The position numbers and the translations under genes were made by a program. Shown here piece after piece: positions 13,440 through 30,710 of a stretch of DNA of 64,000 bases (positions within the stretch are counted from its first letter, which is position 1; each line of letters begins with the position of its first letter). Source of the DNA: Spirosoma profusum (GTDB taxonomy: Bacteria > Bacteroidota > Bacteroidia > Cytophagales > Spirosomataceae); NCBI RefSeq assembly GCF_014699005.1, contig NZ_JACWZY010000014.1, forward strand, positions 62,001 to 126,000, written 5' to 3'. The notes beneath the pieces are model-generated. The model saw only the letters and a program-made list of their open reading frames with translations, made no database searches and had not been told where the DNA came from.

Positions 13440-13463
13440 AGGGTTTGATTTGGATCGGGATTT

Positions 13464-13522
13464 GTAGAGATAAGGCATGCCTTGTCTCTACATGCGCCAG
13501 CAATAAACCATCCGGCGTAGAA
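13464..13522. repeat. Palindrome (one substitution) with truncated long-form spacer
   Basis: Bases 13464-13491 are the 28-bp palindrome with one change (GAGATAAGG for GAGACAAGG). They are followed by ATGCGCCAGCAATAAACCAT, a diverged copy of the spacer in the long elements at 5448 and 33424. The right hairpin is missing, so this is a decayed long form. Confidence 0.75.
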
Positions 13523-13526
13523 CGTA

Positions 13527-16181
13527 TCATTCACTACGTAGTGATTTCACGGGATTGACCAGCGCGGCTTTTATGGTTTGGAAACTGACGGTTAGCAACG
13601 TAATGAGCAGAGCACCAACGGCAGAACCCGCGAATACCCACCACGATAGTTCGGTTCGATAATCGTAGTCCTTCAGCCAATCGCTCAGATAATAGTAGGC
13701 AATGGGCGACGCAATCAGACAGGCGATAATCACCAGCACCACAAAGTCTTTCGACAGCAAACTCCACAGATTTAAGACCGATGCACCCAGCACTTTGCGA
13801 ACACCGATTTCTTTGGTACGTTGTTCGGCCACAAACGACGACAGCCCAAATAAGCCCAGGCAGGAAATCAAAATAGCCAGTATGGCAAAGCTGCCAGCCA
13901 GTTTACCGATACGTTCCTCTGACGCAAACTTTTTACCGAATTCTTCGTCGGCAAACTTATAATCGAATGGGGCAGACGGTACGTGTTTCTTAAAAATAGA
14001 TTCGATGGTAGCAATGGACTGACTGGCACTCCGGGCTGGATTTAATTTGAGCATTATCCAGTTGACGTTCTCATAATCCATGATATAGATTGCCTGTTTC
14101 ACGGGTTCATAAGGCGATTCTGCCAATACGTCCTTGATAACCCCGACAATCGTAAAATAGTCAGGCTTATTGGTATCACTTTCCTCTCCCCATTTGACGA
14201 CTGTGCCGAGCGGATGCTCAAGGCCCATGAATTTGACGGCGGCTTCGTTGATCACAATGGCCGACGAATCGGTTGTGAACTTCCTCGAAAAATCCCGGCC
14301 TTCCTTGAATTGCCAGCCAACCGTTTTGCCGAAGTCGTGGGTAACCCAAACCGTCGCGAAATCAGAGTCGAGAGATGGATCTTTACCGGGCCAGCTGAAG
14401 CCACCATTATTCGACCAAATGCCCGTTAACGGACTGGACGACTCGGCCATTTCCTGAATAACCCCCGCATTTTTAAGGTCTGTTTTTAGTACGTCGTATT
14501 TGCCATAATACGCGGGCGACATCATCTGCATCATCAGCAGTCCATTGTTGTCGTAGCCAAGGGGCCGATTTTTGGTGTGCTGAATTTGCCGGTAAACGAT
14601 AATGGTTCCGATAATCAGTGTAATGGAAACCGTGAATTGAACCACCACCAGCACTTTGCGCGGAACAGCCGCCAATCCACCTACTTTGAAAGTCCCTTTT
14701 AAGACCTTAATTGGCTGGAACGAAGAGAGATAGAACGCGGGATAGCTGCCTGCCAGCAACCCGGTAATTAGAATAAAGCTAAAACTCGCCAGCCAGAATG
14801 AGGCATTGGCCCAGGGGAACGCTATCTGCTTGTCGGCCACCTCGTTGAACCAGGGTAAAAGAGCGAGTATAAGCAGTATAGCACCGCCAAACGCAAAGAC
14901 AACTACCAGAAATGACTCACTAAAAAACTGATTGATTAGCTGGCTGCGTACTGATCCTACAGCTTTGCGTATGCCCACTTCTTTGGCTCGTTTTTCACTA
15001 CGTGCCGTACTCAGATTCATGAAATTGATGCAGGCCAGCAGCAGCACAAATAGGCCCACAATGGCAAACAACCGAACGTACTGCATATAGCCCCCCGTTT
15101 GGATGCCCTCTTCCCAATTGGAATGCAGACGCCAGTCGCTCATTGGGTGAAGAAACATCTCCGATTTATATTTCTTCTGGTGGTCTGGTACGTTGTTTAA
15201 TTTGGAATTTTTGATTCGGGAACTCACCGTTTCCATGTCCATATTATCAGCGATCTGGACAAATAGCTGGAAGGAGTTATTGTCCCACACACGCTGATCA
15301 AGAGCCTGTTTTACCCAGGGCTGTGTTGCTACGTACAACGCCCATGAAGCAATGAACGTAAGCTCGCGAAATTCGGTGTTGAAGGGTAGATCTTCATAAA
15401 CCCCCGTTACGCGAACATCTGCCTTGCCGTCAATATTGATGAGTTTCCCCATCGGATTGTCCTGTCCAAAAAGTGATTGGGCCGTTGAGGCCGACAGTAA
15501 AATGGTGTTGGTTTCTTTCAGACCATTACGGCTGCCTTTCAGCATGTGCAACGACAGGATTTCGGGCATTTCGAAGCCCATGTAATTGCCTGTTCGCGTG
15601 ATCTTTTTATCACCGTATGACAGAATGCGATCGCCCTGCCAGGTGGCCATCGCCAGGTGTTTAAAGTTATTGCCGTACTTATTCCGCAATTCATCGCCCA
15701 ACGGAGCTGGAATTGAGTTCTGTGAACTGATGTGCCCGTTAGACGTCTGATGTTGCATAACCTGGGCAATGCGGTCGTAGTGCTGGTGGTAGGTGTTGTA
15801 GGATAGTTCGTCGTATATCCACAGGCCAATCAGCATCGCAACCGCCATACCGACAGCCAATCCGCCAATGTTTATAGCGGAATAACCTTTATGTCTGGTC
15901 AGATTCCGAAAAGCGATTTTTAAATAATTACGAAGCATGTCTGTGTTTGATGGATTTGAATACTGTTTTGGTTCGTGCTTAATCGCAGATGACCCTCCGG
16001 TCCGGGGCTTTAGAAATCCTACTACGTTCCGCCAGTAATGCCATTTCGCCCGTTGCTCGCCAACTCGACGTAGCTGATAGGCAAATTCTTCGTGCAAATC
16101 GCCCTGTACTTCCTCCAGTCGATGAGGAGCGCAGAATAGACGTAGCAGTTGGTCGGCCAGGCGGGGTGGGGTAGTTGGCAT
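13527..16181 (-). CDS. Orphan FtsX/MacB-like ABC permease with prefix domain (operon 1, gene 1)
   Basis: 884 residues from the ATG at 16181 (MPTTPPRLADQLLRLF), the first permease after the PadR gene. An upstream in-frame ATG at 16202 lies in the G-rich repeat and was not used. Prefix domain 1-75; Met82 starts MLRNYLKIAFRNLTRHK; TM1 about 100-123. FtsX1 contains INFMNLSTARS and KRAKEVGIRKAVGSVRSQ; FtsX2 contains RTKEIGVRKVLGASVLNLW; the tail is ALVNPVKSLRSE. The gap to the PadR gene is 73 bp. Being first in the operon and sharing its core with the next two genes, it could be the parent of the local duplications, though order alone does not prove that. Substrate unknown. Confidence 0.9.
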   Translation of the reverse strand: MPTTPPRLADQLLRLFCAPHRLEEVQGDLHEEFAYQLRRVGEQRAKWHYWRNVVGFLKPRTGGSSAIKHEPKQYSNPSNTDMLRNYLKIAFRNLTRHKGYSAINIGGLAVGMAVAMLIGLWIYDELSYNTYHQHYDRIAQVMQHQTSNGHISSQNSIPAPLGDELRNKYGNNFKHLAMATWQGDRILSYGDKKITRTGNYMGFEMPEILSLHMLKGSRNGLKETNTILLSASTAQSLFGQDNPMGKLINIDGKADVRVTGVYEDLPFNTEFRELTFIASWALYVATQPWVKQALDQRVWDNNSFQLFVQIADNMDMETVSSRIKNSKLNNVPDHQKKYKSEMFLHPMSDWRLHSNWEEGIQTGGYMQYVRLFAIVGLFVLLLACINFMNLSTARSEKRAKEVGIRKAVGSVRSQLINQFFSESFLVVVFAFGGAILLILALLPWFNEVADKQIAFPWANASFWLASFSFILITGLLAGSYPAFYLSSFQPIKVLKGTFKVGGLAAVPRKVLVVVQFTVSITLIIGTIIVYRQIQHTKNRPLGYDNNGLLMMQMMSPAYYGKYDVLKTDLKNAGVIQEMAESSSPLTGIWSNNGGFSWPGKDPSLDSDFATVWVTHDFGKTVGWQFKEGRDFSRKFTTDSSAIVINEAAVKFMGLEHPLGTVVKWGEESDTNKPDYFTIVGVIKDVLAESPYEPVKQAIYIMDYENVNWIMLKLNPARSASQSIATIESIFKKHVPSAPFDYKFADEEFGKKFASEERIGKLAGSFAILAILISCLGLFGLSSFVAEQRTKEIGVRKVLGASVLNLWSLLSKDFVVLVIIACLIASPIAYYYLSDWLKDYDYRTELSWWVFAGSAVGALLITLLTVSFQTIKAALVNPVKSLRSE

Positions 16182-16254
16182 AGGGCAGAGGGGTTTGAGC
16201 ATTGGGTAGGGGTTGGTGCCGGTTTAGACTTATCCCATAGCCCCATGATCTATG
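16182..16254. repeat. G-rich/C-rich imperfect hairpin repeat (GGGCATAGGG family)
   Basis: Contains AGGGCAGAGGGGTTTGAGCA and TTGGGTAGGGGTTGGTGCC, then the C-rich partner ATCCCATAGCCCC. It separates the PadR gene from the first permease and could form an mRNA structure at that point. It belongs to the same family as 2702-2776. Confidence 0.7.
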
Positions 16255-16593: not shown

Positions 16594-16621
16594 CGCTATT
16601 AATTAGTTCTAGTTTTGCTGA

Positions 16622-16636
16622 TCAAATGATCGGCCA
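16622..16636 (-). promoter_or_regulatory. Candidate sigma-54-like promoter of operon 1
   Basis: On the minus strand, TGGCCGATCATTTGA lies 29 bp before the PadR start codon. TGGC at the -24 position and TTG at the -12 position have sigma-54 spacing, but the C that normally follows TTG is A. The same block (TGGCAAAGCATTTGT) lies at 26822-26836, 31 bp before the second PadR gene. The shared consensus is TGGCMRAKCATTTGWTC. Conservation is clear; the sigma-54 assignment is an inference. Confidence 0.45.
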
Positions 16637-16700
16637 GAATGAAAAATATGGCTTAGAGTCGCTGAAATGACTTTTCTGGCGATATAGAGTAGTAGCTTTT

Positions 16701-16716
16701 TGTCCGAAACCGGACA
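16701..16716. promoter_or_regulatory. Candidate activator/operator palindrome upstream of PadR operon 1
   Basis: TGTCCGAAACCGGACA is a perfect inverted repeat of TGTCCG with a 4-base centre, located 65 bp upstream of the -24-like TGGC. A related palindrome lies at the matching place before the second PadR gene (26890-26907). The position is typical for an enhancer-binding protein site; binding by PadR itself is the alternative. The rest of 16594-16899 shows no gene; it also carries the promoter region of the divergent gene at 16900. Confidence 0.45.
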
Positions 16717-16899
16717 GGAAACGTACGCTATGGGACAAGCCCGAACAGGTTTGATTTGCCGAAAACAGATCGCTACGTATCGTATTCAGTGAGTTTGGTA
16801 TTCACTACGTTACGTTCACGGCCGCCTAAATACTGTTTGGTTTAGCATGGGTAAACACGATTCAGTCTGCTCTTTTAGTTAGAAATAAATCTTTTTTCG

Positions 16900-17751
16900 A
16901 TGATGAAACATCTGACAAAATATGTGCTCTTCGGTGCTTTACTTGTTGCGAGTGTAAGTGCCGTGATGGCGCAGAAAGGCCCCGAAGATAAAGCGGGCTG
17001 GAAACTTGGTTCACAGGCTTATTCGTTCCGATTATTCTCGTTCGCCGATGCCTTGCGGAAAATTGATAGTTGTGGATTGAAATACGTCGAAGCTTTTCCG
17101 GGACAAACGATTGGTGGTGGCGTCGAAGGAAAGATGGATTTTTCGATGGATGCCGCTACCCGTCAGGCGGTTAAGAAATTAATCAAAGATAAAGGGTTGA
17201 CAGTGGTAGCCTACGGCGTTGTGAACCCCAAAACCGACGATGAATGGAAAACGCTGTTTGAGTTCGCGAAGGATATGGGCATTCTGAACATCAACTCCGA
17301 GCCGACTCCACAACAAATGCCGCTGGTTCGGAAGCTGGCCGATCAATACAAAATCAACGTAGCATTGCACAATCACCCCAAGCCATCGCGCTACTGGCAC
17401 CCTGATACGGTACTGGCAGCTATTGGCGGTAGCAAATACGTCGGTTCCTGCTCGGATATCGGCCACTGGGTACGTTCAGGACTTGACCCGGTCGAATGCC
17501 TGAAAAAACTGAACGGACACGTACTGGGGATGCACTTTAAGGACGTAAAGAAAGAAACGCCCGATGGTAAGTATCACGACGTAGTATGGGGAACCGGCGA
17601 TTGTAAAGTATCAGAAGTGATTGCCGAAATGAAGCGCCAGAAGTTCAAAGGTCCGATTTCGGTTGAATACGAATACCACTGGGAAAACAACGGCCCCGAG
17701 ATTGCCGAAAGCGTGAAAAACTTCCGCAAAATCTACGGTGGCGGGCAGTAG
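16900..17751 (+). CDS. Secreted sugar phosphate isomerase/epimerase-like TIM barrel protein
   Basis: A 283-residue protein with an N-terminal signal peptide (about 1-25, ending VSAVMAQ) and a xylose-isomerase-like (AP endonuclease family 2) TIM barrel. Candidate metal ligands follow the family pattern: Glu in INSEPTP, His in VALHNHPKP, Asp/His in CSDIGHWVRSG, His in GMHFKD and a late Glu in SVEYEYHW. Family members isomerise or epimerise keto-sugars or act on inositol-like compounds; secreted Bacteroidota members often lie near carbohydrate or glycan genes. Here it stands alone on the plus strand between two permease operons, divergent from the PadR gene. Two start codons are adjacent (16900 and 16903). 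The exact substrate cannot be told. Confidence 0.85.
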   Translation: MMKHLTKYVLFGALLVASVSAVMAQKGPEDKAGWKLGSQAYSFRLFSFADALRKIDSCGLKYVEAFPGQTIGGGVEGKMDFSMDAATRQAVKKLIKDKGLTVVAYGVVNPKTDDEWKTLFEFAKDMGILNINSEPTPQQMPLVRKLADQYKINVALHNHPKPSRYWHPDTVLAAIGGSKYVGSCSDIGHWVRSGLDPVECLKKLNGHVLGMHFKDVKKETPDGKYHDVVWGTGDCKVSEVIAEMKRQKFKGPISVEYEYHWENNGPEIAESVKNFRKIYGGGQ

Positions 17752-17766
17752 GGTGGTGTTTGGCAT

Positions 17767-17794
17767 GTAGAGACAAGGCATGCCTTGTCTCTAC
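17767..17794. repeat. 28-bp perfect palindrome (short form)
   Basis: Identical to the copies at 8145 and 10818. Its last three bases on the minus strand provide the TAG stop codon of the gene at 17791-18261. It lies 15 bp after the stop of the plus-strand gene at 17751 and so sits between two convergent genes. Confidence 0.95.
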
Positions 17795-18261
17795 CGCACG
17801 GAATTATCCATATCGGCGGCAATTAACCATCGCCCGTCGGAACCTTTACGAAGGGCAAGAATGAATTTTCCGATATCGGGGCCATCTGCTTTTGCCCGAT
17901 ATGCGCCGATGATGTAGCCCAAATCTCCTCCCTGTGCAAATGATAGTGCACGAAGGAACAGCGGCTGCCCGCCTGAATTGCTATACGCATTTTTTAAGTT
18001 TGCCTGACCACGAATAGCTGGCCGTCGAGGTTGCAGAACAAACCCATCTGGCGTAAATAAACTCACCAGCTTTTCGGCATTGCCGGCGCCCCATTCGCGT
18101 TCGTAATCACGTAGTACCCGATCAATTTCAGGAGGAAGTGTTACCGAACGTAACGAATCCGTTGGCGGGAAACCTGGACCAGTTTGCTGAGCCATTAGTC
18201 GGCCTGCCAGGCATAACAAGCAGTGGAAAACTATCAGGCGAACTAGTGTCGTATCTTTCAT
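17791..18261 (-). CDS. Secreted SnoaL/DUF4440-like protein
   Basis: 156 residues from the ATG at 18261 (MKDTTLVRLIVF). The frame can be extended to 18294, but that part is encoded by the palindromic repeat. Residues 1-24 form a signal peptide ending GRLMAQ. The rest has the cystatin-like NTF2/SnoaL pattern of the DUF4440 family: EIDRVLRDYEREWGAGNAEK, LVSLFTPDGFVLQPRRPAIR, then a C-terminal strand pair (IGKFILALRKGSDGRWLIAA). The family includes enzymes and ligand-binding proteins, so no reaction can be assigned. The gene is flanked on both sides by identical 28-bp palindromes, and its stop codon lies in one of them. It follows the last permease of operon 2 after 93 bp and could be cotranscribed. 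Confidence 0.75.
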   Translation of the reverse strand: MKDTTLVRLIVFHCLLCLAGRLMAQQTGPGFPPTDSLRSVTLPPEIDRVLRDYEREWGAGNAEKLVSLFTPDGFVLQPRRPAIRGQANLKNAYSNSGGQPLFLRALSFAQGGDLGYIIGAYRAKADGPDIGKFILALRKGSDGRWLIAADMDNSVR

Positions 18262-18284
18262 TTGTTTGTATGGATTATCTGGAT

Positions 18285-18312
18285 GTAGAGACAAGGCATG
18301 CCTTGTCTCTAC
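18285..18312. repeat. 28-bp perfect palindrome (short form)
   Basis: Identical to the copy at 17767-17794. Together they bracket the DUF4440-like gene. It lies in the gap between that gene and the last permease of operon 2. Confidence 0.95.
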
Positions 18313-18354
18313 GTAACGTACGTCGAATGGGATACGTAATGACGGGAAACAACT

Positions 18355-20979
18355 CTATTCACTACGTAGTGATTTCACCGGATTCATCAATGCAGCTTTG
18401 ATGCTTTGGAAACTGACTGTTAGTAAGGCAATGCCGATCATTGCAAACCCAGCTAGTGCAAATAACCACCAGTTCAGATCAGTTTTGTAGGCGTAACTCT
18501 GTAGCCAGCGATTGAGAAACCACCAGGCGATTGGCGAAGCAATCAGAATAGCGATAAGAACTACGATCAGAAAGTCGCGGGAAAGTAACGTAACGATACT
18601 GAAAACCGATGCGCCGAGCACTTTCCGAACCCCGATCTCTTTAGTACGTTGCTCAGCCGTGAACGAAGCGAGGCCAAACAGCCCTAAGCAGGCAATAAAA
18701 ATTGCCAGTATGGCGAAGTAATTTACCAGTGTGCTTACCATCAGCTCGCTTTGGTACATATTCTGGTATTCCTGATCAGCGAAGGAAAAGCTAAAAGGAA
18801 ACGTTGGATTTAACGTTTTGCAAACTTTCTCAAGACTAGCTAACGCCTGTTTGGTTTGACCGGGTTGCGTGCGCACCAGCAGATTGCCATACGTGTTCGC
18901 TTCCCCAAACCACATAATCAGCGGTTTAAGCGGTTCGTGCAGGGACTGGAAATGAAAATCCTGGATAACACCAATAATTTTGCCCGGTTTCCCCCAGAAC
19001 GTGAGCGGCTGTCCGACTGGATTTTTATAGCCAATACGTCGGGCCGCTTGTTCATTGATTACATACCCCGATGAATCGGTCGGAAAATTGCGCGAAAAAT
19101 AACGACCGGCTATTACTTTCATGCGCGTGGCTTTATCCAGATCATAGCCAGTCGAAACCTGCGCAAACCCAATGTTGACAGCCGGATCTTTCCCTTGCCA
19201 ATCGACCCAGGTGGTATTGCTGCCTATTCTGCTGGGATGATAATCCATTCGGGCAATGTACTGAATGCCCGGCATGCGCTGTAACTCCTGTTTTAGAATT
19301 GGATAACTGGTTAATAAAGCGCCTTCCAGAGGTACGTAAATCAGGTTTTCCCGGTCGAAGCCAAGATTCTTGTTTTGAATGAAATTTATCTGTCGATAGA
19401 CGACAAATGTGCCAATGATCATGAACATCGAGATAACGAACTGTACGACAACCAATCCTTGTCGAAATAGACCCTTCGCTGACCTTTTCGTTGGTGCAGA
19501 GATAATTCCTTTCAATATGCGAACGGGTTGTAAGGACGATAAAAACAAGGCCGGATAACTACCCGCCAGAAATCCTGTGAACAACATAATAACCAATAAA
19601 GCCAACCAGAAATCCGGCTCAGTAATTGGGAGAGCAACCTGCTTGTTACTCAGTTGATTAAAGGCTGGCAGGAGAAGGCTAGTCAATACTAAAGACAAAA
19701 TAACCGCTACGAAAGTCAGTAAAAGTGCCTCGCCGATAAACTGACTGATTAACCGGGATCGCTCAGCACCGATTACTTTACGAATGCCCACCTCTTTAGC
19801 ACGATTGGCAGAACGGGCCGTCGAAAGATTCATAAAGTTGATGCAGGCCATAAGTAGCAGAAAACCAGCTACTATGCTTAATAACCGTATATAGTCGATG
19901 CGCCCCCCCGAAATCTCGCCATTGTCTGTTTGAGCATATAAATACATGTCCTCATACGGCTGAAGAAACAACTCAACATCAAACCGGCTGGCGTTTTTCG
20001 TATTGATTCCCAGGTAGCTCCGAAGAAAGTGTTTAATCTTAGCATTGAAGGCCGCTACGTCGGTATCCGAACGTAGTTGGAGAAAGGTTTCCGGACTTGG
20101 GTTGCCCCACTCTCTGGCCCAGGATTCCCTTTTCAAAAAATCATCCCAGGAAAGCAGAAAATCGTATTTCTGAGATGTATTCTCGGGTAAATTCTCAAAA
20201 ACAGCCGTTACCTGATACGTCTCTTTATTGTCAATCCGAACCGATTTGCCCAAGGCGGCTTGTGGGCTACCAAAATACGTATCGGCCAATTTCCGGGAAA
20301 GCGCTAAACTATTCGGGGCTTTCAGCGCTGTTTCTGGTGAACCACTCAGCAACGGCACACTAAACAGGTTGAACCAGTTGACGCCTGCCCATTCACCCGT
20401 TTCTTTGTTAATCTTGTCACCGACCGTAAATGTGAGGTGCGCATGTCGATTGGAAAACCCTGCCGCCTGGACAATCTCCGGAAACTTTTTCGGTATCTCC
20501 TGAGACATAGGTCCAGGCGTTTCGGGCATTGCCATTCGCTTTCCATCTGACAATTGCCGCCACATAATTCGGTATAAATGGGGGCCATTGGCATGGTAGT
20601 GGTCTACCCGCAATTCATCCCGAATCCAGAGGAAGATGAGTAAACTACAGGTGAGGCCAAGCGCTAATCCCAAACTATTAATGGCTGAAAAAGACTTATG
20701 TCGCCAAAAATTGCGGAAGGCGATTTTTAGATAGTTGTGTAACATGGCAGGGCTTAGTAGGAGGGGTGATGAATAATCCGTTGGTTGTCTCTTTAGAGCA
20801 AATGGGCGGATAAACCGTAGCACATTGAACCAATACTGACGATTAGCTTTTACCACGCCGTTACGTTTCATATCTCGAACATATCGCTCATATAAATCGC
20901 CCTGCACCTCCTCCAGCAGATGCGGAGCGCAGAACCATTCGAGCAGTCGATCAGCCCATCGGGGTGGGGTGTTTTGCAT
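18355..20979 (-). CDS. Orphan FtsX/MacB-like ABC permease with prefix domain (operon 2, gene 3)
   Basis: 874 residues. The prefix (1-75) is of the operon-2 type: ADRLLEWFCAPHLLEEVQGD followed by LYERYVRD, in place of the GDLHEEF type of operon 1. Met79 starts MLHNYLKIAFRNFWRHK; TM1 about 96-117. FtsX1 carries NRAKEVGIRKVIGAERS after INFMNLSTARS; FtsX2 carries RTKEIGVRKVLGASVFSI; the tail is NPVKSLRSE. The core is close to the gene at 23799 and clearly different from the one between them (21058). No ATP-binding motifs. Membrane permease, substrate unknown; the MacB-like extracytoplasmic domain suggests mechanotransmission or export at the inner membrane. Confidence 0.9.
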   Translation of the reverse strand: MQNTPPRWADRLLEWFCAPHLLEEVQGDLYERYVRDMKRNGVVKANRQYWFNVLRFIRPFALKRQPTDYSSPLLLSPAMLHNYLKIAFRNFWRHKSFSAINSLGLALGLTCSLLIFLWIRDELRVDHYHANGPHLYRIMWRQLSDGKRMAMPETPGPMSQEIPKKFPEIVQAAGFSNRHAHLTFTVGDKINKETGEWAGVNWFNLFSVPLLSGSPETALKAPNSLALSRKLADTYFGSPQAALGKSVRIDNKETYQVTAVFENLPENTSQKYDFLLSWDDFLKRESWAREWGNPSPETFLQLRSDTDVAAFNAKIKHFLRSYLGINTKNASRFDVELFLQPYEDMYLYAQTDNGEISGGRIDYIRLLSIVAGFLLLMACINFMNLSTARSANRAKEVGIRKVIGAERSRLISQFIGEALLLTFVAVILSLVLTSLLLPAFNQLSNKQVALPITEPDFWLALLVIMLFTGFLAGSYPALFLSSLQPVRILKGIISAPTKRSAKGLFRQGLVVVQFVISMFMIIGTFVVYRQINFIQNKNLGFDRENLIYVPLEGALLTSYPILKQELQRMPGIQYIARMDYHPSRIGSNTTWVDWQGKDPAVNIGFAQVSTGYDLDKATRMKVIAGRYFSRNFPTDSSGYVINEQAARRIGYKNPVGQPLTFWGKPGKIIGVIQDFHFQSLHEPLKPLIMWFGEANTYGNLLVRTQPGQTKQALASLEKVCKTLNPTFPFSFSFADQEYQNMYQSELMVSTLVNYFAILAIFIACLGLFGLASFTAEQRTKEIGVRKVLGASVFSIVTLLSRDFLIVVLIAILIASPIAWWFLNRWLQSYAYKTDLNWWLFALAGFAMIGIALLTVSFQSIKAALMNPVKSLRSE

Positions 20980-21057
20980 AAGGCAGACGGTTTAGAGCAT
21001 AGGGGAGGAATGGATTGAGTGAGATTTTACCCCATGCCCTTACCCCTATGCCCTCTG
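20980..21057. repeat. G-rich/C-rich imperfect hairpin repeat (GGGCATAGGG family)
   Basis: G-rich AAGGCAGACGG and GAGCATAGGGGAGGAATGG, then C-rich TTTACCCCATGCCCTTACCC and CTATGCCCTCTG. It fills the gap between two operon 2 permeases. Its right end resembles that of the copy inside miaB (CCCCATGCCC...CCCTCTGC). Confidence 0.7.
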
Positions 21058-23724
21058 CTATTCACTACGTAACGATTTCACCGGATTCACCAGCGCGGCT
21101 TTGATACTTTGGAAACTAACAGTTAACAACGCAATACCAATCGACAATAATCCAGCCAGCACAAACACCCACCATTCGATATCAACTTTGTAGGCGAAGT
21201 CTTTCAGCCACTGATTCATGGCCCACCACGCAATGGGTGAGGCAATTACGAGGGCAATAATCACCAGCTTCAGGAAGTCTTTGGAAAGCAACGTAACGAT
21301 ACTTCCCACGGATGCGCCTAATACTTTCCGAACACCGATTTCCTTGGTACGTTGTTCAGCCGTGAACATTGCCAGCCCGAACAAGCCCATACACGAAATC
21401 AGGATAGCAATAAGCGTAGACGTGTTGACGAGCTGGCCGGTTTTCTCTTCTTTTTCGTAAAGACTGGCAATTGATTCGTCCAGAAATTTGTACTCGAATT
21501 TATGGTCTGGAAATACGCTTTTCCATTGTTGTTCCAGGCTGGCCAGTGTTACCTTTACATCCGACATATCTTTCCCTTTGGTCCGCAGTTTGATACCAAT
21601 ATTCCGTGCCTGTCCCGGCATATATCCGATAAACGTAGCTTCGATTTTTTCGTGGAAAGACTGCTCATGAAAATCCGCAACTACACCCACAATCGGGATT
21701 TTTTTGCCTTGCCACTCAATGAGTTGGTTGAGTGCGTCGGCTGGTTTGCGGAATCCCAGCGCTTTAGCATACGTAGCATTGATGACCAGTTCACGAAGAG
21801 AATCCGTCTTGACGTAATTACGCCCGGCAAGGAGACGTAGCTGATAGAGCGGGATAAAATTTTCATCACCAACCTTTGCCGATACGTCTGTTTCGATAGC
21901 CTGCTTTTTGGGCGGCTGATATTTCATTTTCGTAACCATATAAGCGGGTCCCATCGGCGGAAACCATTCGAGCGTAACCCGATCAACGGTCGATAACTGC
22001 TTGATTTTTTGCAACAGCACATCCCCTTTCTCCCGATCGCCCCAAGGAGGACGAATTTCCAGTATCGCATCGGCCGAAAAGCCGAGGTCTTTATTCCGTA
22101 TAAAACTGAGCTGACGGCTAACCATCAACGTACCGATGATAAAGACCAGGGAAACTGTAAACTGGAATATAATCAGTGCTTTACGAAAATGCCCTTTTTG
22201 TCCATTATTTAAAGCTGTCTGCCCTTTGAGCGTCAACGCCGGTACGTACGACGATAGCACCCAGGACGGATAAAATCCTGACAGTAACGACGTAATGACC
22301 GTAACGCCAAGCAGAAATACAAGCGTTTGAACGCTGAATAAATTGACCGTTAACCCTTTGGGCGTGAGCGTCTGGAAACCCGCCAGAATCGGTTTGACAA
22401 GAACTAAAGCGATCAGAACCGCAAGCAGTGTCAGGAACGTAGTTTCGCTTAGGAACTGCATAACCAGACTCGCACGGCTCCCGCCCATCACTTTACGAAT
22501 TCCGGTTTCCTTGGCCCGCTGCACCGACTGAGCCGTCGATAGATTGATGAAATTGATAGCCGCAATCAGCAGGATAAACCCGGCAACGGCCATCAGGCCA
22601 TACAAGGTTGGCAGATGAGCTTTCCGGGCGTAATTGTCTTGGTAATCTTCGTTGAAGTGAAGGTCAGCCAAAGGTTGTAAAGCGGGCGTATATTTAAACT
22701 CCTTCGGAAAATGAGCCTTGTTAAAACGCTGGAATTGGGCAGTAAATTGAGAAGGCGTAGCACCTTTCGGCAATCTGACAAACGCCTGTGAGGCCGACCA
22801 GATATCATCCCATTGATCGAGGTTGATGCTTTTCTTTAACTGGCTCGCGTGAATCGTAGCAAACGAAATGAAATCGGTGAATATAAAATCGGAAGGTTGG
22901 CTCCAGGCTTTCACAATTCCCGCTACGTTCGCGCGGACCGAATCCTGATAAATAACTTCCTTACCGATCATTTTCTCAATCGGAAGGTTGCCAAAATAGG
23001 TGAGGGCTTTCTGCTCCGAGAGTACTACGTTAAATGGCTCATTGAGTGCCGTTTGCGGATTGCCTGCCAGCCATTGGTACTTGAAAATATCGAAGTACTG
23101 AGGCTCGACAACAACAATCTCACTGTGCGTGTTTTCAAATCGCTTTGGCTTTTCCCGACCATCTGGAATCAATACGTCGGTGCTGATAGTATGAAAGGCC
23201 GCTACCGTTTCCAGCCCGGCAATTTCTTTCCGAATCGCTGCCGGAACAGCGTTGGGTACGAAGCCAACAGGATGCTTTTCGCCCGGATTGCCATATTGTG
23301 CTTCGCCGACCAGCCGGTAAATACGTTCACTATCTGGGTGGAACGTATCGTAGCTCAGTTCGTAATTCGTGATGAGATAAATGACCAGACAGGCCGTTAC
23401 GCCCAGCGTGAGTCCAAGCAGGTTAATCAGCGTACTGATTTTGTTTTTTGCCAGATTGCGGAGGCTGGTTTTGAAATAGTTACGTAGCATAATCGGATGG
23501 AGTAAAATCGGTTGTGAATATTCAGCAGGTTGCCGTTTGAGCGCAAATGGACGTATGAAACGTAGCACGTTGAGCCAATACCTGCGGTTGGCTTTTGATG
23601 TACCGCTACGTTGCTCATCCCGAACGTAACGTTCATATAAATCGCCCTGCACTTCCTCCAGCAGGTGAGAAGCACAGAACCATTCGAGGAATCGGTCAGC
23701 CAGTCGGGGTGGGGTATGTTGCAT
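21058..23724 (-). CDS. Orphan FtsX/MacB-like ABC permease with prefix domain (operon 2, gene 2)
   Basis: 888 residues. Prefix 1-75 of the operon-2 type (ADRFLEWFCASHLLEEVQGD, LYERYVRD). Near residue 79 the canonical MLRNYFKTSLRNLAKNK begins, with TM1 about 96-118 (LLGLTLGVTACLVIYLI). FtsX1 carries QRAKETGIRKVMGGSRAS; FtsX2 carries RTKEIGVRKVLGASVGSI; the end is ALVNPVKSLRSE. Its core is diverged from the flanking paralogs while its prefix and tail match them, again suggesting that the gene ends are exchanged within the operon. 78 and 74 bp gaps with G-rich repeats separate it from its neighbours. Substrate unknown. Confidence 0.9.
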   Translation of the reverse strand: MQHTPPRLADRFLEWFCASHLLEEVQGDLYERYVRDEQRSGTSKANRRYWLNVLRFIRPFALKRQPAEYSQPILLHPIMLRNYFKTSLRNLAKNKISTLINLLGLTLGVTACLVIYLITNYELSYDTFHPDSERIYRLVGEAQYGNPGEKHPVGFVPNAVPAAIRKEIAGLETVAAFHTISTDVLIPDGREKPKRFENTHSEIVVVEPQYFDIFKYQWLAGNPQTALNEPFNVVLSEQKALTYFGNLPIEKMIGKEVIYQDSVRANVAGIVKAWSQPSDFIFTDFISFATIHASQLKKSINLDQWDDIWSASQAFVRLPKGATPSQFTAQFQRFNKAHFPKEFKYTPALQPLADLHFNEDYQDNYARKAHLPTLYGLMAVAGFILLIAAINFINLSTAQSVQRAKETGIRKVMGGSRASLVMQFLSETTFLTLLAVLIALVLVKPILAGFQTLTPKGLTVNLFSVQTLVFLLGVTVITSLLSGFYPSWVLSSYVPALTLKGQTALNNGQKGHFRKALIIFQFTVSLVFIIGTLMVSRQLSFIRNKDLGFSADAILEIRPPWGDREKGDVLLQKIKQLSTVDRVTLEWFPPMGPAYMVTKMKYQPPKKQAIETDVSAKVGDENFIPLYQLRLLAGRNYVKTDSLRELVINATYAKALGFRKPADALNQLIEWQGKKIPIVGVVADFHEQSFHEKIEATFIGYMPGQARNIGIKLRTKGKDMSDVKVTLASLEQQWKSVFPDHKFEYKFLDESIASLYEKEEKTGQLVNTSTLIAILISCMGLFGLAMFTAEQRTKEIGVRKVLGASVGSIVTLLSKDFLKLVIIALVIASPIAWWAMNQWLKDFAYKVDIEWWVFVLAGLLSIGIALLTVSFQSIKAALVNPVKSLRSE

Positions 23725-23798
23725 GGGGCATAGGGTTCAGGGCATAGGGTAGGGGTTGGTGCCGGTTTTACCCTCTGCCCCGACCCCCATGCCTTCTG
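23725..23798. repeat. G-rich/C-rich imperfect hairpin repeat (GGGCATAGGG family)
   Basis: GGGGCATAGGGTTCAGGGCA and TAGGGTAGGGGTTGGTGCCG, then TTTTACCCTCTGCCCCGACC and CCCATGCC. This is a clear member of the family, placed between two permease genes of operon 2. A short related G-rich piece (AGGGCAAGGAGG) also follows at 26419-26443. Confidence 0.7.
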
Positions 23799-26417
23799 CT
23801 ATTCGCTACGTAATGATTTCACAGGGTTCATCAATGCGGCTTTGATGCTTTGGAAGCTGATTGTCAGTAGGGCAATACAAACGGCTACCAGGCCAGCGAG
23901 GGGGAACATCCACCATTCGATGTCGATTTTATAGGCAAACTCCTGTAGCCATTGCTTCATGGCGTACCAGCCTAGGGGTGAAGCAATGAGAATGGCGACC
24001 AGAACTAATTTCAGGAAATCGACTGATAGTAGTGCCACTACGCTGGCGACTGAAGCGCCCAGTACTTTGCGTAAGCCGATTTCTTTGGTACGTTGCTCAG
24101 CCATGAAAGCCGCTAAGCCGAACAAGCCCAGGCAGGAAATGAAAATGGCCAGAAACGCAAAATAGTTTGCCAATGTGCCAATAATGGTTTCGCTGCGGTA
24201 TAGCTTCTGAAACGCCTGATCAGCAAAGGTATACGTGAACGGAAACTTTGGATTAAACTGTTGCCAAACCGATTCCAGACTCGCTAGTGCCTGCTTTGAT
24301 TGCCCTGGCTGCGTTCGAACAATAATACTTTTACGATCAGACTTGGGGCTCAATTTGACAATCATCGGCTCAATGGCCTGATGGAGCGAATTTTGGTGAA
24401 AATCCTTCATAACACCAATGATATTCCCCGTTTTGCCCCACAATGTCAGCTGCTTGCCAATCGCTTGCTGATAACCGATACGTCGGGCGGCTGTTTCATT
24501 AATCAGGAAAGTTGTGGAATCCATACCAAAATCGCGTGAAAAATCCCGACCTGTTACGTTCACTTTCAGGGTTTTGGTGAAATCATAATCGACCGTCGAA
24601 AACTGAAACATCAACGTACTGGTAGGGTTTTTACCGGGCCACTGAACATTTCTTGTACTGCCAAACGTATTGGTCGGACTTCCATCCATGTAGGTAACGG
24701 ACTGTATACCTGGCTTTTGCAGGAGTTCCTGCTTGAATGCTGTATAATTGGTTGCTAATTCGCCTTCTCCCTTCAGGTAAATCAGATTTTCACGGTCAAA
24801 TCCCAAGTTAGTGGTTTGGATAAAGCCAATCTGTCGGTAAACAATAATGGTCCCGATGATCAGCAGTATCGACAGCGAAAATTGAAAAACGACCAGCCCC
24901 TGCCGGAACAGTCGCGCTCCTGCTCCAAATCGAAGGGTGCCTTTTAGTACCCGAATGGGGTTCAGCGACGAAAGCACTAACGCCGGGTAACTGCCCGCAA
25001 TGAAACCCGTTATGAGCGTCATTCCTAGCAGGGTTATCCAGAAACTGGCATTGATTAATGGGAAACTGATTTGCTTGTTGGTCAATGAGTTAAACGCGGG
25101 TAGTAATAATGCTGTCAGGACCAGAGCAATAACCAGTGCTATAGTCGTCAATAGCAGTGCTTCGCCAATAAACTGTCCGATCAGTAAACTCCGGGCCGCG
25201 CCCACAACTTTCCGAACGCCTACCTCACGCGCCCGCTTGACCGAACGGGCGGTGGCCAGATTCATGAAATTAATACAGGCAATCAGGAGAATAAAGGCAG
25301 CCACAATACCGGCCAATCGGACGTACTCGATTCGGCCGCCAGACTGATACCCATTTTTGAAATTAGAATAGAGGTACGCATCCTGATAAGGTTGCAGAAA
25401 GAGCTGAATATCAAACTTCTCTTTTCCAATAGATGGGTTATAACGCTTCAGGAAAGTCTTCATTTTGGCCTCCAGCTTAGCCGGATCAGCCGAAACACCG
25501 TTGCGATCGGTCCGGAGCTGAATACGAGCAACAGGCGCGTTGCTGCCCCAATCCTTGAGCCACTCATTTCGTTGCAGAAAATCCTGCCAGGGAAGCACAT
25601 AATCGTAGGTTTCTGAGCTATTGGCGGGTATATCCTCAAATACGGCGCTGACCTGATAATCAGCTGTATTGTCCAGACGGATACTTTTGCCCATCGCTTC
25701 CTGCGGACTCCCGAAGTAATTCTGAGCCAGTTTTCGGGAAATGGCGATGTTATTGGGAGCCGCCAGCGCTGTCTCTGCCTTACCTGCCAGCAGAGGAAAA
25801 CTGAACATCGTAAACCAGCTCGCACCCGCAGATCGCCCTATTTCTTTGTTGAGCTTATCCCCAACGGCGAACGTGAACGTCTGCTCCCAGGATAAACTGG
25901 CCGCGTGCTCAATTTCAGGAAATACTTTTTCCAATTCCTCGGCTAACAGCGCAGGTGTGCTTGGACTAGCCTCAATTTTACCATCAAAAAACTGACGCTC
26001 CATAACTGTGTAGAGTTGCGGGCCATTAGCGTGATAGGCATCTACACTGAACTCATCCTGAATCCAGAGATAGATAAGCAGGCTGGTAGCCATGCCCAGT
26101 GCCAGACCCATAATGTTGATGGCCGAAAATGATTTATGCTGAATCATATTTCGCCAGGCGATTTTCAGATAATTACGTAGCATGACAGGATTACCAAAAA
26201 AGTTTAGCTGATAGTCAGATGATTGTCGTTTGAGGGCAAATGGACGGAAGAAACGTAGTACGTTCAACCAGTATTTCCGATTGGCTTTTGACGTACCACT
26301 ACGTTGCAGATCACGCACGTAGCGTTCATATAAATCGCCCTGCACTTCCTCCAGCAAATGCGGAGCGCAGAACCATTCGAGCAGTCGATCAGCAAAGCGA
26401 GGTGGGGGACGTAGCAT
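23799..26417 (-). CDS. Orphan FtsX/MacB-like ABC permease with prefix domain (operon 2, gene 1)
   Basis: 872 residues, first permease after the second PadR gene (26-bp gap). Prefix 1-75 (ADRLLEWFCAPHLLEEVQGD, LYERYVRD); Met79 starts MLRNYLKIAWRNMIQHK; TM1 about 96-118. FtsX1 has KRAREVGVRKVVGAARS after INFMNLATARS; FtsX2 has RTKEIGLRKVLGASVASV; the tail is NPVKSLRSE. It is closely related to 18355-20979. No nucleotide-binding motifs. The tight spacing to PadR supports cotranscription from the shared promoter upstream of that gene. Confidence 0.9.
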   Translation of the reverse strand: MLRPPPRFADRLLEWFCAPHLLEEVQGDLYERYVRDLQRSGTSKANRKYWLNVLRFFRPFALKRQSSDYQLNFFGNPVMLRNYLKIAWRNMIQHKSFSAINIMGLALGMATSLLIYLWIQDEFSVDAYHANGPQLYTVMERQFFDGKIEASPSTPALLAEELEKVFPEIEHAASLSWEQTFTFAVGDKLNKEIGRSAGASWFTMFSFPLLAGKAETALAAPNNIAISRKLAQNYFGSPQEAMGKSIRLDNTADYQVSAVFEDIPANSSETYDYVLPWQDFLQRNEWLKDWGSNAPVARIQLRTDRNGVSADPAKLEAKMKTFLKRYNPSIGKEKFDIQLFLQPYQDAYLYSNFKNGYQSGGRIEYVRLAGIVAAFILLIACINFMNLATARSVKRAREVGVRKVVGAARSLLIGQFIGEALLLTTIALVIALVLTALLLPAFNSLTNKQISFPLINASFWITLLGMTLITGFIAGSYPALVLSSLNPIRVLKGTLRFGAGARLFRQGLVVFQFSLSILLIIGTIIVYRQIGFIQTTNLGFDRENLIYLKGEGELATNYTAFKQELLQKPGIQSVTYMDGSPTNTFGSTRNVQWPGKNPTSTLMFQFSTVDYDFTKTLKVNVTGRDFSRDFGMDSTTFLINETAARRIGYQQAIGKQLTLWGKTGNIIGVMKDFHQNSLHQAIEPMIVKLSPKSDRKSIIVRTQPGQSKQALASLESVWQQFNPKFPFTYTFADQAFQKLYRSETIIGTLANYFAFLAIFISCLGLFGLAAFMAEQRTKEIGLRKVLGASVASVVALLSVDFLKLVLVAILIASPLGWYAMKQWLQEFAYKIDIEWWMFPLAGLVAVCIALLTISFQSIKAALMNPVKSLRSE

Positions 26418-26443
26418 AGGGCAAGGAGGTAAGGGCAGAGGAT

Positions 26444-26791
26444 TTATGAACCGGCCAGACCGATGGTTGGTAAAGCGTTGGGTTCAATAGAATTCCACAA
26501 TTGATCGCGCATGGAACGGATGTCGTGCAACGTGCGGCTTCCGAGTGCCGTAACCGTAAACAGTCGCTTGCGTCGGCCACCTCGTTCGGCGGTTGCATCA
26601 CCCATATGTGAGTAAAGCATACCTTTTTCCTGAAGTCGACTTAGGGCAGCATGAACGGCACTGATGCTCACCGAGCGGCCCGTTTGCCGATCCAGCTCGT
26701 CGGTAATGGCTACACCGTAAGCTTTTTCATTCAGGACCGCTACGGTCAGCAGGACAACCTCTTCAAATTCTCCCAGATACGTTCGTTTCAT
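26444..26791 (-). CDS. PadR-family transcriptional regulator, head of permease operon 2
   Basis: 115 residues from the ATG at 26791 (MKRTYLGEFEEVVLLTVAV). The frame can be extended to 26941, but the added 50 residues have no counterpart in the first PadR protein and cover the conserved promoter block. The winged helix is seen in YGVAITDELDRQTGRSVSIS, VHAALSRLQEKGMLYSHMG and the wing ERGGRRKRLFTVTALG. It is a paralog of 16255-16593, most alike in the first 20 residues and the wing. It heads the three-permease operon and probably controls it. The ligand is unknown. Confidence 0.92.
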   Translation of the reverse strand: MKRTYLGEFEEVVLLTVAVLNEKAYGVAITDELDRQTGRSVSISAVHAALSRLQEKGMLYSHMGDATAERGGRRKRLFTVTALGSRTLHDIRSMRDQLWNSIEPNALPTIGLAGS

Positions 26792-26821
26792 TACGTAGCA
26801 TATATATTCAACTTCTGTAGA

Positions 26822-26836
26822 ACAAATGCTTTGCCA
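26822..26836 (-). promoter_or_regulatory. Candidate sigma-54-like promoter of operon 2
   Basis: Minus-strand TGGCAAAGCATTTGT, 31 bp before the second PadR start. TGGCA fits a -24 element and TTG a -12 element, but the C after TTG is T. It matches the block at 16622-16636 at nearly the same distance from the start codon. No standard Bacteroidota -33/-7 promoter (TTTG, TAnnTTTG) at correct spacing was seen around it. Confidence 0.45.
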
Positions 26837-26889
26837 ATCTGTAAAAAGTGGATTCCTGGCCTGATTTAGCGTATGTGATAGGCAATGAG

Positions 26890-26907
26890 TTGTCCGATAT
26901 CGTACAA
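26890..26907. promoter_or_regulatory. Candidate activator/operator palindrome upstream of PadR operon 2
   Basis: TTGTCCGATATCGTACAA is an 18-base palindrome with one mismatched pair, 54 bp upstream of the -24-like TGGC. A half site TTTTGTCCGATG follows at 26909-26920. Its centre is 10 bp closer to the promoter block than the palindrome of operon 1, one helical turn, so both sites would face the same side of the DNA. Confidence 0.45.
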
Positions 26908-27005
26908 GTTTTGTCCGATGATGAACGCGTATGGGAAGCAATTAGTAGTCTACTGATAAATGAATTGGATGGAAGACGAGACTTTTGAGCAATAAACTTT
27001 TTGTT

Positions 27006-30132: not shown

Positions 30133-30612
30133 ATGAACAAGCGATTAGAACGTATTGCCGACCAGGCCCAGTTAGGGGGTGTTTGCGCTGGTCTGGCCGA
30201 TTATTTTGGCATTGACCGTGCTCTGGTGCGGGTATTGTTTGTAATCGGCATTTTTTTGCCGCATTTTCCGGCAATTATTATTTACATTATCCTGTGGATT
30301 GCCTTGCCCGAACGACGTTCGGATGGCGCAGTAGTTCAATCAACCGCGTTTTCTAATCCTTATTTTTCCATGAATCCCTACAATCCCAACAAACCTGCTT
30401 CTCCCGACCGCAGCCTCGTCGGCGGGGCTGTCCTGATTATTCTTGGCATCATCTTTCTTCTAGACCGTTATCTGGATATTGATTTCGGTGATTTATGGCC
30501 GTTCTTCCTGATTGCGATCGGGTTATGGTTAATCTTCAAAGACCGGATCAAACCACCTTATGATAATACCACGAATTACGACAGTCCGAACGACCCAAAC
30601 GCAACCTTGTAA
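30133..30612 (+). CDS. PspC-domain membrane protein
   Basis: 159 residues. Residues 3-60 form a PspC domain: RLERIADQAQLGGVCAGLAD, YFGIDRALVRVLFVIG and a membrane segment ending IILWIALPER. A second hydrophobic part (about 97-140, GGAVLIILGIIFLLDRYLDI and LWPFFLIAIGLWLIF) matches the LiaI/LiaF-type TM region seen in Bacteroidota envelope-stress proteins. The next gene shares this second module, so the two probably form a small envelope-stress operon. PspC proteins sense or relay membrane stress. The partner sigma factor or kinase is not evident from the spacing. Confidence 0.88.
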   Translation: MNKRLERIADQAQLGGVCAGLADYFGIDRALVRVLFVIGIFLPHFPAIIIYIILWIALPERRSDGAVVQSTAFSNPYFSMNPYNPNKPASPDRSLVGGAVLIILGIIFLLDRYLDIDFGDLWPFFLIAIGLWLIFKDRIKPPYDNTTNYDSPNDPNATL

Positions 30613-30616
30613 ACTA

Positions 30617-30694
30617 GATGTATGAACTATGAAGTATGGTGTATGAAAGTAACTGAGTGCACACTCATACACCATATATCATAGTTCATACATC
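30617..30694. repeat. 30-bp-arm inverted repeat (ATGTATGA family)
   Basis: Left arm GATGTATGAACTATGAAGTA followed by TGGTGTATGA; right arm is its reverse complement with two mismatches; loop of 18 bases. It lies between the PspC gene and the LiaF-like gene. A relative lies at 59428-59497, where it supplies the N-terminus of the TamL gene. Confidence 0.85.
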
Positions 30695-30710
30695 ATACTT
30701 TTAAAAAGTT

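What the first reader, a model, noticed from the sequence alone, without database searches (positions are those of the whole stretch)
16594..26920. Same promoter architecture before both PadR genes: sigma-54-like core plus distant TGTCCG palindrome
Seen: TGGCCGATCATTTGA (16622-16636) and TGGCAAAGCATTTGT (26822-26836) lie 29 and 31 bp before the PadR starts. Palindromes TGTCCGAAACCGGACA and TTGTCCGATATCGTACAA lie 65 and 54 bp further upstream, with centres differing by exactly 10 bp relative to the core, one helical turn. Known: sigma-54 promoters have TGGC at -24 and TTGC at -12 and need an activator bound at about -80 to -150. Inference: PadR/permease operons are switched on by an enhancer-binding protein. 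The C of the -12 element is missing in both, so another sigma factor is possible.
Basis: partly seen in the sequence, partly recalled or inferred. Interest (0 to 1): 0.72.

Follow-up and report, generated by a model that had tools for sequence, protein, structure and literature searches.

The report
Shared enhancer switch for permease operons
Two regulator-and-transporter operons in this bacterium carry the same remote-control promoter, and the same design recurs across its genome and its relatives, which suggests that one sensor protein can switch on a large family of envelope transporters while many of these operons also keep a local lock of their own.

Summary
In the 8.7 Mb genome, 26 of 30 palindromes TGTCCG-N4-CGGACA (at most one mismatch) lie 52-67 or 85 bp upstream of TGG[CT]-N7-TTG; one more has only the -24 box, at 52 bp, and three lie inside ORFs. 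15 of 18 PadR genes of this family and 53 of 78 named relatives carry the pair (shuffles: 0 and at most 1). Spacings fall in steps of about 10.5 bp, with about 12 changes of class on a PadR tree.

The likely activator is outside the window: a receiver-AAA+-Fis regulator beside an HlyD-ATPase-permease exporter; 13 of 20 loci of its relatives carry the site, against 0 of 20 for another such regulator.

Two things were missed. A second palindrome sits 20-23 bp upstream in 53 of 65 promoters. And an element overlapping the -12 box and start marks PadR promoters (15 of 15; 2 of 15 promoters without a PadR gene) and co-varies with PadR: probably its operator. The -12 C is mostly absent across the regulon. 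No experiment exists; rpoN dependence is untested.

The parts
16701..16716 (-). Palindrome A, proposed enhancer (activator) site, TGTCCGGTTTCGGACA; centre about -98 from the inferred start
16722..16737 (-). Degenerate second palindrome of A (3 mismatches), 21 bp upstream of the first
   Evidence: a second copy at 20-23 bp is found in 53 of 65 promoters
16622..16636 (-). Sigma-54-like core A: TGGC (-24) N7 TTG (-12), C of -12 replaced by A
16602..16627 (-). PadR-linked element A, ATTTGATCAGCAAAACTAGAACTAAT, overlapping -12 and inferred start; proposed PadR operator
   Evidence: score 21.5 for L016
16255..16593 (-). PadR family regulator A (112 aa)
   Evidence: Pfam PF03551 E 2.4e-10
13527..16202 (-). 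First permease of operon A (891 aa), MacB/FtsX type with N-terminal permease prefix domain 2; further prefix permeases follow (10851-13478 and on into the part before the window)
   Evidence: NF038404 E 1.3e-26; operon walk
26891..26906 (-). Palindrome B, proposed enhancer site, TGTACGATATCGGACA; centre about -88 from the inferred start
26912..26927 (-). Degenerate second palindrome of B (3 mismatches), 21 bp upstream of the first
26822..26836 (-). Sigma-54-like core B: TGGC N7 TTG, C of -12 replaced by T
26802..26827 (-). PadR-linked element B, ATTTGTTCTACAGAAGTTGAATATAT; proposed PadR operator
   Evidence: score 20.7 for L017
26444..26791 (-). PadR family regulator B (115 aa; start by homology, the mechanical ORF of 165 aa runs through the promoter)
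   Evidence: PF03551 E 1.6e-08
18355..26417 (-). Three permeases of operon B (23799-26417, 21058-23724, 18355-20979), all with permease prefix domain 2

Best explanation
The two promoters belong to a regulon of about 30 promoters in this Spirosoma-like genome. A kinase-linked enhancer-binding protein (receiver, AAA+ and Fis-type HTH domains; contig C11:394959-396344, outside the window) binds as dimers to one or two TGTCCG-N4-CGGACA palindromes, set a whole number of helical turns upstream, and by DNA looping activates sigma-54 polymerase waiting at TGGCA-N6-TTG. The targets encode MacB/FtsX-type permeases, an HlyD-ATPase-permease exporter and apparently secreted proteins, so the regulon is probably an envelope or antimicrobial stress response. 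Where the permeases carry an N-terminal prefix domain, the operon nearly always starts with its own PadR gene, and a PadR-linked element lies over the -12 box and start. PadR would thus act as a private lock under the shared switch, probably released through its partner prefix domain. Shown by sequence: the sites, phasing, recurrence, adjacency to one regulator type, and co-occurrence of PadR gene, PadR-linked element and prefix. Inferred: binding, sigma-54 dependence, repression by PadR, the signal.
For: Genome-wide: 26 of 30 palindromes with at most one mismatch have the full core, one more has TGGCACG at 52 bp with TAG at -12, and the other three are inside ORFs. PadR genes: composite in 15 of 18 own and 53 of 78 named relatives; shuffles 0 and at most 1. 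Phasing: 101 palindromes within 21-120 bp upstream of 76 cores, all at 42-43, 52-54, 62-66, 73-76 or 83-86 bp, resultant 0.87 at period 10.5 (not corrected for kinship); nearest palindrome within 41-70 bp in 65 promoters: 32, 30 and 3 in the 53-, 63- and 43-bp classes, with 12 parsimony changes on the PadR tree. A second palindrome lies 20-23 bp upstream in 53 of 65 promoters, and at any other offset from 12 to 35 in one. Order-wide scan: 20 of 156 genomes have the strict composite, up to 10 copies each, against one control match in one genome; of the 30 loci held from it, 17 have a PadR gene and 22 a permease. Activator: composite in 13 of 20 loci of its relatives (12 of the 14 in the same family): before hlyD in 11 and before the regulator itself in 3, one locus having both; against 0 of 20 for the C35-type regulator. 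RpoN present with RpoN box ARRTVAKYRE. PadR element: under a matrix trained on relatives only, all 15 own PadR promoters with a core score 5.7 or more and 13 own promoters without PadR score below 0 (two further ones do not, see against); its similarity tracks PadR identity (Mantel 0.31, permuted maximum 0.14, partial 0.32 given the spacer) and reaches 0.87 against 0.48 for the spacer in pairs above 80% PadR identity. Prefix domain and PadR operon: 32 with both, 26 with neither, 3 exceptions among 61 permeases.
Against: No transcript starts, binding or mutant data. The -12 C is absent in both window promoters; in 76 PadR promoters that base is T 50, A 15, C 11, and in 13 own promoters without PadR G 7, A 4, C 2. 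9 of the 78 relatives have T for the -12 G, 3 have the spacing shifted by one base and 1 has CGGC. The canonical TGGCACGN4TTGC is barely above control in this genome (7 against 3). Adjacency does not prove which activator binds; relatives of this regulator are nearly universal in the order (154 of 156 genomes at E 1e-40), while the strict composite is found in only 20. Seven of the 20 relatives' loci lack the site. Own PadR genes L030 and L033 and relatives L142, L147, L159 and L162 lack the architecture; L029 has it only 0.8 kb upstream, before another gene. Two own promoters carry the PadR-type element without any PadR gene nearby: C57 before an AraC-type gene (score 18.8) and C33b before a prefix permease (5.3). 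The spacer also tracks PadR identity weakly (0.17, permuted maximum 0.14). Outside the order the composite is near background: 6 of 284 genomes with one hit each, against one control hit in 296. The element does not match the ATGT-N8-10-ACAT motif described for other PadR proteins.
Confidence: 0.8

Rival explanations
1. The TGTCCG palindrome is the operator of PadR itself, not an enhancer; PadR controls its operon from there and the core belongs to an ordinary promoter.
For: It lies upstream of 15 of 18 own PadR genes, and several PadR proteins repress their own genes (PMC6624303 passages).
Against: The same palindrome with similar spacing (52-55 bp, in one case 63) precedes permease, exporter and secreted-protein genes without PadR and sits at the activator locus; the element at -12 changes with PadR while the palindrome recurs across PadR clades; a distance of 90-100 bp with helical phasing suits activation.
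Confidence: 0.06
2. Promoter of another sigma factor (the housekeeping sigma of Bacteroidota with its TTTG and TAnnTTTG boxes, recalled, or an ECF sigma) helped by a class I activator; TGGC is a coincidence.
For: -12 C missing; TTTG is also a housekeeping box (recalled); 9 of 78 relatives have T for the -12 G.
Against: TGG[CT] keeps its register to TTG in 26 of 30 genome-wide sites; no TAnnTTTG consensus appears in the 68 aligned promoters; members without PadR mostly read TGGCA[CT]-N5-TTG[GA]; spacing changes by whole turns; the adjacent regulator has the AAA+ sigma-54 domain.
Confidence: 0.12
3. A different enhancer-binding protein of the genome, not the C11 one, binds the palindrome.
For: Six strong candidates exist; adjacency is circumstantial.
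Against: No composite was found in the stretches held around the other five own regulators or in 20 loci of C35-type relatives.
Confidence: 0.15
4. The downstream element is a general part of these promoters or leaders (initiation or translation signal), not a PadR operator.
For: It overlaps the inferred start; part of it (TAAT) is shared across clades; two own promoters have it without a PadR gene nearby (C57, C33b).
Against: Absent from 13 own promoters with the same palindrome and no PadR; co-varies with PadR; keeps its register to the core when the ATG is over 100 bp away (L124, L134, L163).
Confidence: 0.22

Closest known systems
Sigma-54 promoters with NtrC-family enhancer-binding proteins (TGT-N10-ACA upstream sites such as those of NifA, recalled)
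   Same: -24 TGGCA, 7-bp spacing, TTG at -12, tandem palindromes about 90-120 bp upstream on one face of the helix, AAA+ activator with a kinase gene nearby
   Different: -12 C mostly not conserved; activator loop reads GAFTDA; a PadR-linked element lies over the -12 box
Predicted sigma-54 control of FtsX/COG0577 permeases in Bacteroidota (PMC12316311; passages read)
   Same: Same class of target and same sigma factor, predicted from -24/-12 matrices
   Different: That paper does not mention PadR (0 occurrences) and says that EBP specificity is not available for all its organisms; here enhancer motif, candidate activator, phasing and PadR element are added
HAAS-PadR dyads with MacB/FtsX permeases and PSP/Toastrack genes (PMC11237479; passages read)
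   Same: PadR paired with permeases that carry an N-terminal domain; proposed envelope-stress role
   Different: Here the operons also share a sigma-54-type enhancer; that the prefix domain is HAAS-like is inferred, not tested
Listeria sigC-lstR operon (PMC6624303; passages read)
   Same: An alternative sigma factor and an autorepressing PadR integrate two signals at one membrane-protein operon
   Different: ECF sigma and a single operon; here about 15 operons under one shared enhancer

Membership tests
Sigma-54-dependent promoter | -24 box with GG (TGGC) | tested here: met
   Both window cores; in 68 promoters TGG is fixed by the search pattern, the next bases are C in 90% and A in 78%
Sigma-54-dependent promoter | -12 box with G of the GC dinucleotide at fixed spacing | tested here: met
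   Both window cores and 26 of 30 genome-wide sites; not met in 9 of 78 relatives
Sigma-54-dependent promoter | -12 box with C of the GC dinucleotide | tested here: not met
   A and T in the window; C in 11 of 76 PadR promoters and 2 of 13 own others. Verified E. coli promoters that deviate here are quoted in PMC12316311, so this lowers the filing as a canonical member, not the likeness
Sigma-54-dependent promoter | Upstream activator site with helical phasing | tested here: met
Sigma-54-dependent promoter | Expression depends on RpoN | not testable with these tools
   RpoN gene present; no expression data
Sigma-54 enhancer-binding protein (C11 regulator) | Receiver, sigma-54 AAA+ and Fis-type HTH domains | tested here: met
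   PF00072, PF00158 and PF02954 above cut-off
Sigma-54 enhancer-binding protein (C11 regulator) | GAFTGA loop | tested here: inconclusive
   GAFTDA in the own protein; GAFTDA in 16 and GSFTDA in 4 of 20 loci of relatives. NorR G266D, the same substitution, is discussed among bypass variants that retain activity (PMC2941729 passages)
PadR family regulator | PadR winged-helix domain | tested here: met
   PF03551 for both window proteins
PadR family regulator | Operator ATGT-N8-10-ACAT (PMC3506622) | tested here: not met
   The element reads ATTTGnT...CAAAA...A..TAAT, with partial two-fold symmetry about positions 17 and 22.5; this concerns the proposed operator, not the protein family
HAAS-PadR dyad | PadR coupled with an N-terminal HAAS domain on the permease | tested here: inconclusive
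   Prefix domain 2 (NF038404) in all five window permeases tested; prefix and PadR operon agree in 58 of 61; homology of prefix 2 to HAAS was not tested

The most novel reading that the evidence does not exclude
One kinase-activator pair works as the master switch, and some fifteen PadR-prefix-permease operons each have a private PadR lock laid over the -12 element of the same sigma-54 promoter, so that each operon opens only when the global signal and its own permease-borne signal coincide. In this lineage the -12 element has drifted from TTGC in step with an activator loop GAFTDA that differs from GAFTGA at the position of NtrC G219 and NorR G266.
Probability: 0.38. Interest if true: 0.75.

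Novelty: new variant of a known kind. Interest (0 to 1): 0.6.

Why it matters
Orphan MacB/FtsX permeases with PadR genes form large duplicated families in this group of bacteria, and I found no account of how they are controlled. This gives them a concrete circuit: a candidate activator, its motif, a promoter class and a per-operon repressor site, all testable in a cultivable Spirosoma, Larkinella or Dyadobacter. It would show how one alternative-sigma regulon can serve many duplicated operons while each keeps a separate lock, it offers natural variation for the activator-loop and -12 problem, and it warns that sigma-54 searches that demand TTGC will miss promoters like these.

Tried and rejected
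Tried and dropped. (1) Recent duplication of the upstream region: rejected, the window promoters agree in 18 of 50 spacer bases. (2) Palindrome as PadR operator: rejected as argued above. (3) The enhancer-binding protein inside the window (53177-54529) as activator: its neighbours look by eye like a tRNA-modification enzyme and outer-membrane assembly proteins and no composite is near it. (4) Canonical sites TGGCACGN4TTGC genome-wide: 7 against 3 in the control, uninformative. (5) Palindrome at up to two mismatches alone: 252 against 377 in the control, no signal. (6) Pattern GGACA-N40-68-TGGC-N7-TTG: 59 against 43, mostly background, a lead only. (7) Phylum-wide scan: 9 of 296 genomes, near background outside the order. 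(8) A link of regulator presence with motif presence across genomes: not decisive, because relatives of the regulator are nearly universal. (9) Literature: searches listed no paper joining PadR, sigma-54 and these permeases; the library is open access only.

Rows and selection. PadR promoters: 96 (18 own, 78 named). 76 had a core in register and were used (phasing); 68; the 20 without it are printed. The two spacings of 57 bp come from an alternative TGGG core in L118 and L123; one search uses their TGGC core. One search compared 13 own promoters without PadR; C57, C33a and C33b, left out there, were scored and are positive (18.8, 5.9, 5.3). C33a does have a PadR gene as second gene; C57 and C33b have none within the stretches held (best E 0.79 and above). 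The summary's 2 of 15 counts the 13 plus these two. The 78 relatives come from the best 80 of 521 confirmed stretches, so they lean towards close kin.

Limits. The own genome could be scanned whole only with patterns; about 741 kb of 8.73 Mb was held for scripts, most of it chosen for palindromes, PadR genes or activators, so the reversed-sequence control (30 against 0) is not an unbiased rate. One search starts from all 30 genome-wide palindromes. Scripts required TTG in the core. Rayleigh values ignore kinship; the tree count is a partial remedy.

Full report
What was claimed and what is there. Every element is at the stated place. The gaps between palindrome and core are 64 and 54 bases. 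These are the only two palindromes with at most one mismatch in the window. Both PadR proteins match PF03551. The five permeases tested behind them are MacB/FtsX-type proteins with an N-terminal permease prefix domain 2.

Is it more than chance? The genome (8.73 Mb, 81 contigs; the nearest named PadR relatives are Spirosoma and Larkinella) holds 30 palindromes with at most one mismatch. Of these, 26 have TGG[CT]-N7-TTG downstream at 52-55, 63-67 or 85 bp; one more (C11:322156) has TGGCACG at 52 bp but TAG at -12; the other three lie inside ORFs. Two of the 26 are the tandem pair of one promoter, and further promoters have palindromes with two mismatches, so the regulon has about 30 promoters. 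The palindrome alone at two mismatches is not enriched (252 against 377 in the control), so the signal is the composite. Of 18 close PadR genes in the genome (19 hits, the nineteenth weak and not used), 15 have the composite; of 78 loci of named relatives, 53 do; shuffles give 0 and at most 1. In 156 genomes of the same order a strict composite pattern is found in 20, with up to 10 copies, against one control match. Of the 30 loci held from that scan (one of them from this genome), 17 have a PadR gene and 22 a related permease.

Geometry. The palindromes found 21-120 bp upstream of 76 PadR cores lie at 42-43, 52-54, 62-66, 73-76 and 83-86 bp, with none between. Of the periods tried, 10.5-10.75 bp fits best. 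Taking the nearest palindrome within 41-70 bp in 65 promoters, 32 are in the 53-bp class, 30 in the 63-bp class and 3 in the 43-bp class. Twelve changes of class are needed on a PadR tree by parsimony. Insertions and deletions of about one turn have therefore been accepted repeatedly and others have not, which is what looping between a bound activator and a polymerase demands. A second palindrome (up to three mismatches) sits 20-23 bp, two turns, further upstream in 53 of 65 promoters; other offsets from 12 to 35 give one.

The activator. The genome has one RpoN, aligned nearly end to end with solved sigma-54 structures and with the RpoN box intact, and six strong enhancer-binding proteins. 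One of them, C11:394959-396344 (receiver, sigma-54 AAA+ and Fis HTH domains), has a composite site about 2 kb away, in front of an operon for HlyD, ATPase and permease. Among 20 loci of its best relatives in other genomes, 13 carry the composite, including 12 of the 14 in the same family: before hlyD in 11 and before the regulator gene itself in three (L264-L266; L266 has both). Among 20 loci of another ABC-linked regulator (C35 type) none does. The C35 control loci came from a query whose tail was not a true sequence; each matched that query at 63% or more over the receiver domain. The enhancer-binding protein inside the window (53177-54529) shows no such site.

The promoter core. In 68 PadR promoters the core reads TTGGCA-N4-ATTTG[TAC]T, TGG and TTG being fixed by the search. 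Outside PadR promoters, members mostly read TGGCA[CT]-N5-TTG[GA]. The -12 C is present in only 11 of 76 PadR promoters and 2 of 13 own others. Nine relatives (L101, L102, L103, L105, L114, L141, L165, L166, L173) have T for the -12 G, three have the spacing shifted by one base (L129, L135, L158) and one has CGGC (L119). I therefore say that the promoter works like a sigma-54 promoter and leave strict membership open until an rpoN test. The activator's loop reads GAFTDA in 16 and GSFTDA in 4 of 20 loci of relatives, while the four own regulators outside the two ABC-linked ones read GAFTGA or GSFTGA. NorR G266D, the same substitution, is discussed among variants that still activate (PMC2941729 passages). 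A link between loop and -12 element is a hypothesis only.

Downstream of the -12 box, conservation continues for about 20 bases in register with the core, not with the ATG: ATTTGnT...CAAAA...A..TAAT. A matrix trained on relatives scores all 15 own PadR promoters with a core at 5.7 or more and 13 own promoters without PadR below zero. Three further promoters are positive: C33a, where PadR is the second gene, and C57 and C33b, where no PadR gene was found in the stretches held. So two of 15 promoters without PadR break the rule; C33b still precedes a prefix permease, and C57 precedes an AraC-type gene. The element's similarity follows PadR identity (Mantel 0.31, permuted maximum 0.14; partial 0.32 given the spacer), and the spacer itself shows a weaker 0.17 against 0.14, as kinship would give. 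In pairs above 80% PadR identity the element is 87% identical while the spacer is 48%. It has partial two-fold symmetry about positions 17 and 22.5 of the core numbering, though not the ATGT-N8-10-ACAT of other PadR proteins (PMC3506622 passages). The simplest reading is a PadR operator over the -12 box and start.

Two branches of one regulon. Of 61 permeases in the stretches held, 34 have the N-terminal prefix and 27 do not; prefix and PadR operon agree in 58. Of the three exceptions, C5:11102 has its own composite promoter just upstream, C33a has a PadR gene just upstream that ORF calling missed, and C33b has the element but no PadR hit. So prefix, PadR gene and PadR-linked element nearly always come together, while the enhancer is common to both branches. 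Published work proposes HAAS domains as PadR partners, fused among others to MacB/FtsX permeases, in PSP-like envelope stress systems (PMC11237479 passages). One target here, C11:307325-308380, resembles a Toastrack repeat protein by eye but has no Pfam hit. A DUF2807 gene (PF10988, C4:81478-82182) lies beside another site, but on the side away from the core found there, so it is not counted as a target.

How it most likely works. A membrane or envelope signal reaches the kinase; the phosphorylated regulator binds the palindromes and activates sigma-54 polymerase at some 30 promoters. Operons without PadR respond directly. Operons with PadR would also need release of their own PadR, perhaps through the prefix domain of their permease. 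The first half is well supported by sequence; the second half is inference.

Known or new. A 2025 matrix study already predicts sigma-54 control of FtsX-type permeases, including in Bacteroidota, and calls it the first evidence for that link (PMC12316311 passages). PadR plus an alternative sigma factor at one operon is known from Listeria (PMC6624303 passages). I found no paper that joins PadR, sigma-54 and these operons, or that gives this motif or activator, in searches of an open-access library. The combination is a new variant of a known kind. It is largely confined to this order: of 284 genomes sampled outside it, 6 have one hit each, against one control hit, though single Chitinophaga and Flavobacterium loci have it.

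Noticed in passing
G000 contig C57:22172-23141: An AraC-type regulator gene, not a PadR gene, sits behind a full composite promoter that also carries a strong PadR-type element (score 18.8); no PadR relic was found there.
   Followed up: partly
G000 contig C33:59764-60927: A composite promoter with PadR-type element is followed first by a gene for an apparently secreted 230-aa protein and only then by PadR and a prefix permease: a gene seems to have entered the operon.
   Followed up: partly
window 53177-54529: An enhancer-binding protein with GSFTGA next to genes that look by eye like LptE and MiaB; no TGTCCG composite nearby, so a different regulon is likely.
   Followed up: partly
window 30133-31742: By eye, a PspC-like protein and a LiaF-like protein with an Asp-rich stretch lie some 3-4 kb from operon B; no composite site was listed before them, although PSP-type genes are linked to PadR systems elsewhere.
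   Followed up: no
G000 contigs C11:311092-380143 and C5:11102-88417: Very large tandem expansions of MacB/FtsX permeases: in the stretches held 20 without prefix in this part of C11, and 20 with prefix on C5.
   Followed up: partly
G000 C4:2872-3246, C4:50291-50665, C14:73010-73384: Three similar, apparently secreted proteins of 124 aa (one tested: weakly like FlgD Ig domains, below the cut-off), each behind a composite promoter of the regulon; function unknown.
   Followed up: partly
C11- and C35-type activators: The sigma-54 contact loop reads GAFTDA or GSFTDA rather than GAFTGA in all 20 loci of relatives examined for each type.
   Followed up: partly
window 26444-26941: The mechanical ORF of PadR B extends by 50 codons through its own promoter; the real start is very probably 26791.
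   Followed up: yes
L124, L134 (Emticicia), L163: The whole promoter with PadR-type element lies 110-136 bp upstream of the PadR ATG instead of about 45, so these operons have a long leader; L132 and L133 have palindrome and core at such a distance but a poor element.
   Followed up: no
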